Origin: Clostridia bacterium
GTDB lineage: Bacteria > Bacillota_A > Clostridia > Oscillospirales > CAG-272
Assembly (NCBI GenBank): GCA_017472105.1
Contig: JAFUQY010000269.1
Coordinates: forward strand, 1 to 5,561
Direction: 5' to 3'
Length of the DNA stretch: 5,561 nt
The notes below the pieces were generated by a model. It was not told the DNA's origin and did not search any database. It was given only the letters and a program-made list of their open reading frames with translations. Position 1 is the stretch's first letter, and each line of letters begins with the position of its first letter. Shown here piece by piece: positions 122 through 5,317 of this stretch. Made by a program: the position numbers and the translations under genes.

Positions 122-1339
122 ATGAACGCAGTAGGAATCGACGTATCCAAAGACAAAAGCATGATCACTGTCATACAGCCGCTTGGCGTTGTGGTTGCTG
201 AACCTTATGAAGTCCGCCACACCGAAAGTGAACTCAGAGAACTGGCAGGGTTTCTGAAAAGCCTTTCCGGTGAAACAAAGGTAATCATGGAATACACGGG
301 TCACTACTATGAACCGATTGCACGGTATCTCCACGATGCCGGACTGTTTGTTTCCGTAGTCAATGCCATCCTCATTCATGACTACAACGAAAACACGAAA
401 GTAAGAAAAGGCAAAACCGATGAAAAAGATGCTGTCAAGATCGCTTCATGGGGGCTTTCTCACTGGCTGGATCTGCCGAAGTACACACCGGAAGATACCA
501 TCCGGCAGGAACTCAAAATCTGCAATCGGCAGTACATACAGTACAACAAGATCAAGACCATGATGAAGAACAACCTGATCTCCCTTCTCGATCAGACCTT
601 TCCGTGGGTAAATACCCTGTTCTCATCTCCAGCCCGTAAAGAAGACGGTCATGAGAAATGGGTGGATTTTGCTCTGTATTTCTGGCACAGGGAGTGTGTC
701 AGCGGGATTTCAGAGAATGCTTTCAAGAAGAAATACGAAGCATGGTGCCACAAACATGGCTATCAGTACCGTGAATCAAAAGCATCCGAAATCCATACTA
801 AAGCAAGAGCAAGTGTTTCTGACCTGCCGAAGGATGAAACCGTCAAGTTCCTGATCACACAGGCAATTACGCAGCTGAATACCGTTACCGAAACGTTGGC
901 AGCCTTCCGCAAAGAAATGGAGCGTTTAGCATCCCTTCTGCCGGAATACGATACCGTTATGCAGATGTACGGCTGCGGTCCCGTTCTCGGTTGCCAGCTT
1001 ATGGCTGAGATCGGGGATATCCGCCGGTACACTTCCAAGAAAGCTCTGGTCGGGTATGCGGGCATCGATGCTCCTCCGAATCAGTCCGGTAAGGTAGATG
1101 TTTCCTCCCGAAGCATATCAAAGCGTGGTTCTGCCAGCCTCCGTAAAACGCTGTTTCAGATCATGACTGTTATTCTTCAGAACAGTCCGCCTGATGAGCC
1201 TGTTTACCAGTTCCTTGATCGAAAACGAGCGGAAGGCAAGCCATACAAGGTGTACATGATCGCTGCCGCCAACAAGTTTCTCAGAATCTACTATGCCAGA
1301 GTAAAAGCCTGTGTTGAATCTACCGCTGCTTCGGACTGA
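122..1339 (+). CDS. IS110-family transposase (DEDD recombinase)
   Basis: This 405-residue protein catalyses movement of the insertion sequence, in this family guided by a bridge RNA. The N-terminal RuvC-like DEDD domain (about 1-160) shows Asp7 in GIDVSKD, Glu57 in VIMEYTG, and Asp100 and Asp103 in KTDEKDA, so all four acidic residues are present. A helical, probably coiled-coil linker follows (about 235-272). The C-terminal IS116/IS110/IS902 domain carries a helix-hairpin-helix-like stretch (YGCGPVLGCQLMAEIGDI, 283-300), then YAGIDAPPNQSG with Ser322 as the likely catalytic serine, and SISKRGSASLRKTLF. The length is normal for the family and the frame is intact, so the protein may be active. 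The start is set by GCAGGAG (107-113), 8 nt before the ATG. No promoter is visible just upstream, which fits elements transcribed from outside or from a circular junction. Confidence 0.96.
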   Translation: MNAVGIDVSKDKSMITVIQPLGVVVAEPYEVRHTESELRELAGFLKSLSGETKVIMEYTGHYYEPIARYLHDAGLFVSVVNAILIHDYNENTKVRKGKTDEKDAVKIASWGLSHWLDLPKYTPEDTIRQELKICNRQYIQYNKIKTMMKNNLISLLDQTFPWVNTLFSSPARKEDGHEKWVDFALYFWHRECVSGISENAFKKKYEAWCHKHGYQYRESKASEIHTKARASVSDLPKDETVKFLITQAITQLNTVTETLAAFRKEMERLASLLPEYDTVMQMYGCGPVLGCQLMAEIGDIRRYTSKKALVGYAGIDAPPNQSGKVDVSSRSISKRGSASLRKTLFQIMTVILQNSPPDEPVYQFLDRKRAEGKPYKVYMIAAANKFLRIYYARVKACVESTAASD

Positions 1340-4375: not shown

Positions 4376-5059
4376 TCAACTGAAATATTTCCGCCACGGA
4401 AGCGCATCCGCAAAGGTATAGGTTTTCTTCAGCCACGCGGAGATTGCACCGATCATGGAGCCGTTGACGAGCGCGCACACCACGGTACCCCAGCTGACAC
4501 CGACGAATCTGCCGAAGCCGAAGAACGCGAAGGACATGAGGATGCTCACACCGAGGCTGACGCAGTCGTAGACGGTCTTGAATTTGCCGATGTCCCAGCC
4601 TCTGGACTGCGCAATGGTCTTGACGAACAGCTCATACGCCTCCGGTGCGATGTAGGTATAGAACAGGAGCGCAACGCCGAGGGAGCAGACGGGCATGCCG
4701 AGAAGGTACCACACGATCCGCCAGACAAGACCTTCCGCCGGCAGGAACGAGCACAGCCAGATGCATCCGTCGAGCGTGAAGCCGTAGATCACCGCGGTGA
4801 CGAAGGAGAACAGGAACATGAGCTTGAATTTCCGCATCACGACGGCAAGCAGGATCAAGAGAAACGCCTGGAAGGTGTACTCCGCCATGCCGAAGGAGAA
4901 GAACGGCAGAAATTCCGAAATTTTCACGTGCAGGATGTACGCCGGAGAGACGACCATGGACATCCCGAAGCCTGCGCGCTCCATGAATGCGGTGCCGAGT
5001 GCGAGAATGATGATGCCGAGTATGTATGCCGCTTCGGCGTAAAGGGTGCGTTTTTTCAT
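4376..5059 (-). CDS. YczE/YyaS/YitT-like integral membrane protein
   Basis: This 227-residue, very hydrophobic protein has about six predicted membrane helices (roughly 7-27, 52-75, 80-104, 112-136, 165-185, 190-210). The segment GTAFMERAGFGMSMVVSPAY (22-41), placed after the first helix, and the overall size resemble the YczE/YyaS/YitT group (also labelled DUF6198 in clostridia). Members are assumed to be transporters but their substrates are unknown. The start is set by GGAGG (5068-5064), 4 nt before the ATG. The gene is alone between its leader and a UUCG terminator. The leader of about 175 nt with two terminator hairpins suggests that expression is normally off and is switched on by a signal during transcription. 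Family assignment is by pattern only. Confidence 0.7.
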   Translation of the reverse strand: MKKRTLYAEAAYILGIIILALGTAFMERAGFGMSMVVSPAYILHVKISEFLPFFSFGMAEYTFQAFLLILLAVVMRKFKLMFLFSFVTAVIYGFTLDGCIWLCSFLPAEGLVWRIVWYLLGMPVCSLGVALLFYTYIAPEAYELFVKTIAQSRGWDIGKFKTVYDCVSLGVSILMSFAFFGFGRFVGVSWGTVVCALVNGSMIGAISAWLKKTYTFADALPWRKYFS

Positions 5060-5068
5060 ATTTCCTCC

Positions 5069-5120
5069 AAAAAAACAAAAGCAGCCCTGCGTGTTTGATA
5101 AAGAAACACGAAAAGCTGCT
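5069..5120 (-). terminator. Second leader terminator, touching the ribosome binding site
   Basis: On the minus strand AGCAGC (5120-5115) pairs with GCTGCT (5085-5080), and inside it CGTGTTT (5110-5104) pairs with AAACACG (5096-5090) around a 7-nt loop, with a 4-by-4 internal loop between the stems. The T-rich tail TTTGTTTTTTT (5079-5069) leads directly into GGAGG at 5068-5064. Folding would end transcription just before the gene. Confidence 0.75.
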
Positions 5121-5131
5121 GAATTTCAAAC

Positions 5132-5164
5132 AAAAAACCCTCGAAACTGTTGCTTCAAGGGTTT
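5132..5164 (-). terminator. First leader terminator
   Basis: On the minus strand AAACCCTTGAA (5164-5154) pairs with TTCGAGGGTTT (5145-5135) over 11 bp with one G-U pair and an 8-nt loop, followed by a run of T (down to 5132). It lies about 70 nt into the leader and directly follows the CATAGAC arm of the upstream stem, so the two could stack. Confidence 0.82.
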
Positions 5165-5241
5165 GTCTATGCGGGACGTTAAAGATGTTTTCACGTTTTT
5201 TCTTCATAGACACGAACTCTGTCGGCTCGTTTTGCAGAAAT

Positions 5242-5270
5242 ATTATAACATACATCCTTGGCTATTTCAA
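5242..5270 (-). promoter_or_regulatory. Promoter of the membrane protein gene and its leader
   Basis: On the minus strand TTGAAA (5270-5265), a 17-bp spacer and TATAAT (5247-5242) with an extended TGT in front form a strong housekeeping-type promoter. A short inverted repeat, TGGCT and AGCCA (5259-5274), overlaps the -35 box and could be a protein site, though arms of 5 bp are weak evidence. Confidence 0.87.
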
Positions 5271-5280
5271 GCCATACACG

Positions 5281-5317
5281 AAAAATAATCGACCACAGTA
5301 TTTCATGTGATCGACCA
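5281..5317 (-). terminator. Terminator of the serine recombinase gene
   Basis: On the minus strand TGGTCGATCACA (5317-5306) pairs with TGTGGTCGATTA (5297-5286) over 12 bp including three G-U pairs, with an 8-nt loop, followed by TTTTT (5285-5281). It lies 20 bp after the recombinase stop codon and 10 bp before the -35 box of the next unit. Confidence 0.87.

What the first reader, a model, noticed from the sequence alone, without database searches (positions are those of the whole stretch)
5060..5240. Leader with two tandem terminators before a YczE/YitT-like membrane protein
Between a strong promoter and the gene lie two good intrinsic terminators in series, the second ending exactly at the ribosome binding site. 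The gene can be expressed only if both are prevented. I recognise no known riboswitch motif. It may be an undescribed ligand-, drug- or translation-responsive attenuator, and could reveal what this poorly understood membrane family handles.
Basis: partly seen in the sequence, partly recalled or inferred. Interest (0 to 1): 0.7.

Follow-up and report, generated by a model that had tools for sequence, protein, structure and literature searches.

The report
Conserved leader hairpin before YczE-like gene
Just upstream of a gene for a poorly understood bacterial membrane protein lies a small RNA hairpin, often also a transcription stop signal, whose shape and loop sequence recur before related genes in other bacteria, which suggests an undescribed switch for this gene; the second stop signal beside it is a local addition.

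Summary
On the minus strand a strong promoter (5270-5242) is followed by two intrinsic-terminator hairpins, T1 (5164-5128) and T2 (5120-5069); T2's U-run touches the ribosome binding site of a DUF6198/YczE gene (5059-4376). Only T2 is conserved. It recurs as a hairpin with core GUUUCUNUAUCAAAC, 17-50 nt before the start codon and on the coding strand, in 17 DUF6198 leaders from 16 genomes, with compensatory changes around the core (eight seeds alone). In 9 of 16 leaders with a scored promoter it directly follows the promoter. In 8 genomes chosen for carrying it, 9 of 9 motif matches are at DUF6198 genes; in an order-wide model scan 8 of 18 genomes with a match have it there, 6 of 10 at 35 bits or more. 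At least 14 related genes lack it. No Rfam family matches. T1 was found only in the window's species, beside serine-recombinase genes, and looks like a recent addition. Best reading: a small RNA-level regulatory hairpin, an attenuator in most copies; in five leaders its core instead folds onto the Shine-Dalgarno region. What it senses is unknown.

The parts
5242..5270 (-). sigma-70-type promoter TTGAAA-17-TATAAT, extended -10; predicted start near 5235
   Evidence: start inferred from the -10 position
5164..5212 (-). P1, 8-bp outer stem UGUCUAUG/CAUAGACA; found in the window species only
   Evidence: z -2.8
5128..5164 (-). T1, intrinsic-terminator hairpin with U-rich tail; found in the window species only
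   Evidence: z -5.6
5069..5120 (-). T2, conserved leader hairpin plus U-run
   Evidence: z -6.8
5093..5107 (-). core GUUUCUUUAUCAAAC (consensus GUUUCUNUAUCAAAC) at the tip of T2
5100..5110 (-). stretch of the 5' arm and loop able to pair with the Shine-Dalgarno to start-codon region (5067-5057); candidate anti-SD
   Evidence: -9.9 kcal/mol; role inferred
5064..5068 (-). Shine-Dalgarno GGAGG
4376..5059 (-). DUF6198 (YczE-like) membrane protein, 227 aa
5338..5559 (-). C-terminal part of a serine-recombinase gene (full frame at L346:4200-5840 in the same species); end of a mobile element inferred
5283..5317 (-). terminator-like hairpin after the recombinase gene; a second copy lies elsewhere in the same species

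Best explanation
T2 is a small cis-regulatory RNA hairpin of a DUF6198/YczE clade. Shown: its tip is conserved in sequence and the stem below it in structure; it lies on the coding strand close to the start codon; in 11 of 17 leaders at least 6 of 8 bases within 30 nt after the core are T, so that it has the form of an intrinsic terminator, in nine leaders right after the promoter. Inferred: much transcription stops at T2 and the gene is made by regulated read-through; the loop and the 5' CUUU tract are read by a trans-acting factor (an RNA-binding protein or small ligand, not identified) that shifts the balance, in a direction that I cannot tell. Where the hairpin is weak and no U-run follows, the same sequence would act on translation. 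P1 and T1 in the window are a recent addition that came with a new promoter at the edge of a mobile element, so that here the gene sits behind two terminators.
For: Eight seed leaders covary (score 0.314 against 0.134 shuffled, 0 of 500; slid controls at most 0.157). Twenty copies: 82.5% of cells paired, 9 pairs with changes on both sides (23 of 500 shuffles reach that), covariation 0.358 against 0.190 (0 of 500), slid 0.06-0.17. Core to start codon is 17-50 nt in 17 of 17, while -10 to core runs from 10 to 134 nt in the 16 with a scored promoter. In 8 genomes chosen for carrying the element, 9 of 9 pattern matches are at DUF6198 genes. On the tree 16 of 18 labelled rows lie in one 31-row clade, support 99/93.
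Against: 14 rows of that clade lack the element though the gene is there (a fifteenth, L007, has no upstream sequence). Four strong copies (43 to 52 bits, one of 35) precede something else, and three of those four genomes have no DUF6198 match. L035, L036 and L080 have no U-run, L081 none after the stem. The seeds were picked by eye because the core recurs, and the later copies were found with a model that holds the core, so its invariance is partly ascertained. The number of further pair types is no higher than shuffled (131 of 500; 452 of 500). No factor, ligand or expression data.
Confidence: 0.5

Rival explanations
1. Constitutive hairpin: a partial terminator or 5' mRNA stabiliser that sets a steady level, with no sensing.
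For: In nine of 16 leaders the hairpin starts near the predicted transcript 5' end, a usual place of protective hairpins (general knowledge); in L072, L076 and L092 it lies directly after a tRNA gene, where it could serve as that gene's terminator.
Against: A stabiliser or plain terminator needs no fixed loop, yet loop and 5' UUU tract are nearly invariant while flanking pairs swap, with the ascertainment caveat.
Confidence: 0.25
2. Bistable translational switch: the 5' arm and loop are an anti-Shine-Dalgarno, either locked in the hairpin or paired with the ribosome binding site.
For: In 7 of 17 leaders the core pair of the hairpin has probability 0.24 or less; in five of them (L035, L036, L037, L040, L071) the favoured fold pairs the core with the SD region. 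Own core-SD duplexes are stronger than exchanged ones (-7.7 against -6.6 kcal/mol, p 0.01; best L040 -16.3, L036 -14.1).
Against: The test was made after seeing the folds. In 8 of 17 leaders the own partner ranks ninth or worse of 17; the weak-hairpin subset alone gives p 0.06. In ten leaders, the window's species among them, the hairpin has probability near 1; in the window it is -20 kcal/mol against -9.9 for the alternative. Of the other two weak ones, L081 pairs otherwise and L080's favoured fold keeps the hairpin.
Confidence: 0.15
3. DNA operator: an inverted repeat bound by a repressor next to the promoter.
For: In several loci its core lies about 20 bp after the -10; YczE genes elsewhere are tied to MocR regulators (PMC4944035, passages).
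Against: Same orientation in 17 of 17 although its centre is asymmetric; stem positions swap instead of keeping a sequence; promoter distance varies up to 134 nt, in L072 and L092 across a tRNA gene.
Confidence: 0.06
4. P1 and T1 with the overlapping small frame form a leader-peptide attenuator acquired with the promoter.
For: An open frame with an ATG inside P1 runs through T1.
Against: No recognisable ribosome binding site before that ATG (read by eye); only two near-identical sequences exist, so coding constraint cannot be tested.
Confidence: 0.04

Closest known systems
Protein-controlled terminators of the RAT/BglG-LicT-SacY type (recalled, no call)
   Same: A short leader hairpin tied to an intrinsic terminator that could be read by an RNA-binding protein
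   Different: I see no alternative antiterminator hairpin beside T2; sequence resemblance to a RAT was not tested; the target is mostly a single DUF6198 gene
LoaP and the dfn hairpin
   Same: Bacillota leader hairpin plus intrinsic terminator; factor binding to the hairpin relieves termination (PMC12691694, passages)
   Different: dfn is a UNCG-type hairpin separate from the terminator, before long polyketide operons; here a 7-nt loop, and hairpin and terminator in one
MocR (YczR) control of yczE genes
   Same: Regulation of the same broad membrane-protein family (PMC4944035, passages)
   Different: There a transcription factor with DNA sites and divergent genes, mainly in Actinobacteria and Gammaproteobacteria; here an RNA-level hairpin, in Clostridia where the genome is named

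Membership tests
Any Rfam release 15 family | covariance-model match at the leader | tested here: not met
   Searches (window, E up to 1; ten related loci, 34,359 bases, E up to 5): no match overlaps the hairpin
DUF6198 (PF19700, YczE-like) | Pfam profile match over cut-off | tested here: met
   66.1 bits, cut-off 27, residues 3-216
Intrinsic terminator | stable stem directly followed by a U-run | tested here: met
   window T1 and T2; 11 of 17 leaders have 6 or more T in 8 bases within 30 nt after the core, 6 of 17 do not
Intrinsic terminator | actual termination in vivo or in vitro | not testable with these tools
   no RNA data
LoaP-responsive dfn hairpin | UNCG-type loop | tested here: not met
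   loop is CUNUAUC, 7 nt, with few exceptions; dfn is described as UNCG-type
Riboswitch | aptamer apart from the expression platform | tested here: inconclusive
   no room in nine of 16 leaders (core 19-27 nt after the -10); the window has room, but that part was found in one species only
Riboswitch | ligand binding by the RNA | not testable with these tools
   no binding data
Leader-peptide attenuator | translated small frame with ribosome binding site, conserved in coding sense | tested here: inconclusive
   a frame exists in the window without a clear ribosome binding site and with only two near-identical copies; for the T2 core no start codon position is shared, and 4 of 16 leaders have no start codon reaching it
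RAT/BglG-type antitermination | RAT sequence and a BglG-type protein | not tested
   recalled only

The most novel reading that the evidence does not exclude
An undescribed class of minimal leader switch: one hairpin of about 45 nt, starting at or near the transcript's 5' end, is sensor, terminator and anti-Shine-Dalgarno store at once. Its core GUUUCUNUAUCAAAC is read by a factor or ligand tied to what DUF6198/YczE proteins handle; in some lineages the same core controls termination, in others ribosome access.
Probability: 0.2. Interest if true: 0.7.

Novelty: new member of a known kind. Interest (0 to 1): 0.5.

Why it matters
YczE/DUF6198 proteins are widespread and their substrate is unknown. 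A conserved RNA element that sits mostly before this one gene gives a handle: whatever makes the leader read through should point to the function of the protein. It also adds a covarying motif, absent from Rfam 15, to the leader RNAs of uncultured gut Clostridia, with a very small design.

Tried and rejected

Limits: one search scored only the 16 best first-look candidates of a genome, only 15, only 6, so their counts are lower bounds. In one search I looked at the wrong side of minus-strand loci; corrected. Upstream stretches of 58 more DUF6198 genes (57 listed, one), not of all listed, were scanned with R2. Start codons were chosen by script. The bootstrap of the tree had not settled. On recount I lowered the probability of the novel case from 0.25 to 0.2, because the core pairs with the SD region in five leaders and not in seven, and corrected the codon argument above.

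Full report
What is there. On the minus strand an 11-of-12 promoter (5270-5242) is followed by stem P1, terminator T1, terminator T2, GGAGG and the start of a 227-aa DUF6198 protein. T1 and T2 fold far better than shuffles (z -5.6 and -6.8, 0 of 200 each). T2's U-run (5079-5069) abuts GGAGG (5068-5064).

Which part is conserved. One scan of the genome collection with the protein gave 11 loci. L001 is the window's species (1656 bases at 99.6%) and has the whole leader. L002 (79% protein identity), L004 (66%) and L005 (54%) have T2 only, directly after their promoter. L003, L006, L008, L009 and L010 do not have it, L011 has a decayed copy (18.9 bits), and L007 has no upstream sequence. T2 as a DNA query also pointed to a second place in the window's species, which proved to be the leader of a second DUF6198 gene, L063. 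A family-level protein search (34 of 146 genomes with a match) gave more leaders: L035, L037 and L040 carry it, and L036. From L001, L002, L004, L005, L035, L037, L040 and L063 I built model R1. It matched in 18 of 394 genomes of the order. Reading these left DUF6198 genes in L069, L071, L072, L074, L075, L080 and L081 besides G002 itself, and other neighbours in four strong copies: L070 (no clear gene), L073 (NT5C plus guanylate-kinase domains), L076 (after tRNA-Ser, barstar-like frame by eye) and L077 (MatE). A class-level scan of 391 genomes added L092. In all, 17 DUF6198 leaders in 16 genomes, L011 not counted.

The element. Twenty copies (A3; 16 DUF6198 leaders and the four others) share the core GUUUCUNUAUCAAAC with loop CU-N-U-A-UC and few exceptions, a nearly invariant 5' CUUU tract, and a stem whose outer and middle pairs change together: 82.5% of cells paired, nine pairs with changes on both sides (23 of 500 shuffles reach that), covariation 0.358 against 0.190 shuffled (0 of 500) and 0.06-0.17 for slid partners, while further pair types are no more than shuffled (131 of 500). 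Since later copies were found with a model that already held the core, the fairer test is the eight seeds: 88.8% paired, four pairs with double changes (115 of 500), covariation 0.314 against 0.134 (0 of 500) and at most 0.157 slid, further types 452 of 500. The seeds too were picked by eye because the core recurs; the flanking pairs were not a criterion. The controls have the limits that the tool states.

Where it sits. In 17 of 17 DUF6198 leaders it is on the coding strand, 17-50 nt before the start codon. From the -10, the core begins 19-41 nt downstream in eleven of the 16 leaders where a promoter was scored (19-27 in nine), at 10 in L081 and 74 in L069 (poor promoter scores), and at 113-134 in the window's species, L072 and L092; in the last two a tRNA gene lies between. 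Eleven of 17 have at least 6 T in 8 bases within 30 nt after the core; L005 and L063 have five, L081 five but within the arm, L035 and L080 three, L036 two.

Specificity. In 8 genomes that were chosen for carrying the element the pattern has 9 matches, all at DUF6198 genes. In the order-wide model scan 8 of 18 genomes with a match have it before a DUF6198 gene; at 35 bits or more it is 6 of 10. Of the four genomes with strong copies elsewhere, three have no DUF6198 match and one (G462) has the gene without the element next to it (L283 and L345). DUF6198 itself is in 93 of 315 order genomes, and most of those read have no element: R2 over 93 loci and upstream stretches found clearly only the four known ones (L307 borderline at 20.9 bits). 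On a tree of 78 proteins 16 of 18 labelled rows (L011 counted) lie in one clade of 31 (99/93), and two, L074 and L092, in a six-row group of another clade. The label needs 10 changes, shuffled mean 16.4, 0 of 500 as low. So it is old in one clade with many losses, or it moves with the gene.

P1 and T1. A DNA search for the promoter-P1-T1 part in 118 family genomes found it whole only in the window's species; 11 other genomes had short weak matches, none over 50 bases. Upstream lie serine-recombinase frames, a PemK-like gene and a terminator hairpin that has a second copy elsewhere in that species. I infer that an insertion replaced the original promoter, which left T2 about 110 nt further from the new one and added T1.

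Mechanism. The hairpin most likely works as RNA: same orientation, compensatory pairs, near-fixed place relative to the start codon and not to the promoter. In most leaders it is a ready terminator. Loop and CUUU tract are kept as sequence even where CUUU has little or no partner (L035, L036, L080, L081), which points to recognition by something. A further hint came late: in 7 of 17 leaders the core pair of the hairpin has probability 0.24 or less, and in five of these the favoured fold pairs the core with the SD region. Own partners pair better than exchanged ones (-7.7 against -6.6 kcal/mol, p 0.01). That test was made after seeing the folds; it is carried by L040, L036, L071, the window, L074, L081 and L002; 8 of 17 own partners rank ninth or worse; the weak-hairpin subset alone gives p 0.06. 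I keep it as the boldest reading.

What is known. No Rfam family matches. Searches for YczE, YitT, DUF6198 or DUF161 with riboswitch or RNA-motif terms showed no paper on such a leader (listings only, listing 25 of 395, in an open-licence library). PMC4944035 (passages) ties some YczE genes to MocR regulators and suggests transport of metabolites linked to PLP; PMC4634765 (passages) reports a start site of yczE in Bacillus. PMC12691694 (passages) describes LoaP and its UNCG hairpin, which differs. The predicted protein structure gave no telling match.

Noticed in passing
window 5283-5317; L346 5866-5887; L359 around 2602: A terminator-like hairpin with core GATCACATGARATACTGTGGTC occurs twice in the window's species, after a recombinase gene and after an unrelated gene; up to 3 mismatches, none in three related genomes.
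   Followed up: partly
L346 1579-5840: PemK-like gene and several serine-recombinase frames directly upstream of the leader, a presumed mobile-element end.
   Followed up: partly
window 122-1339: IS110-family transposase gene at the other end of the window.
   Followed up: no
L256, L272, L277, L278 upstream of the start codon: Another DUF6198 subfamily shares a different leader sequence with the words CTAAACTATTTTTAG and ATTTTTTGGAGGCG over four loci.
   Followed up: no
L073 826-2049; L077 reverse strand around 1515: Copies of the hairpin before a gene with NT5C and guanylate-kinase domains and before a MatE transporter gene; the MatE one has a deviating loop and may be chance.
   Followed up: partly
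L072, L076, L092: The hairpin directly follows tRNA-Met, tRNA-Ser and tRNA-Trp genes and could serve as their terminator; in L072 and L092 DUF6198 comes next, and L008 has tRNA-Ser before DUF6198 with another terminator.
   Followed up: no
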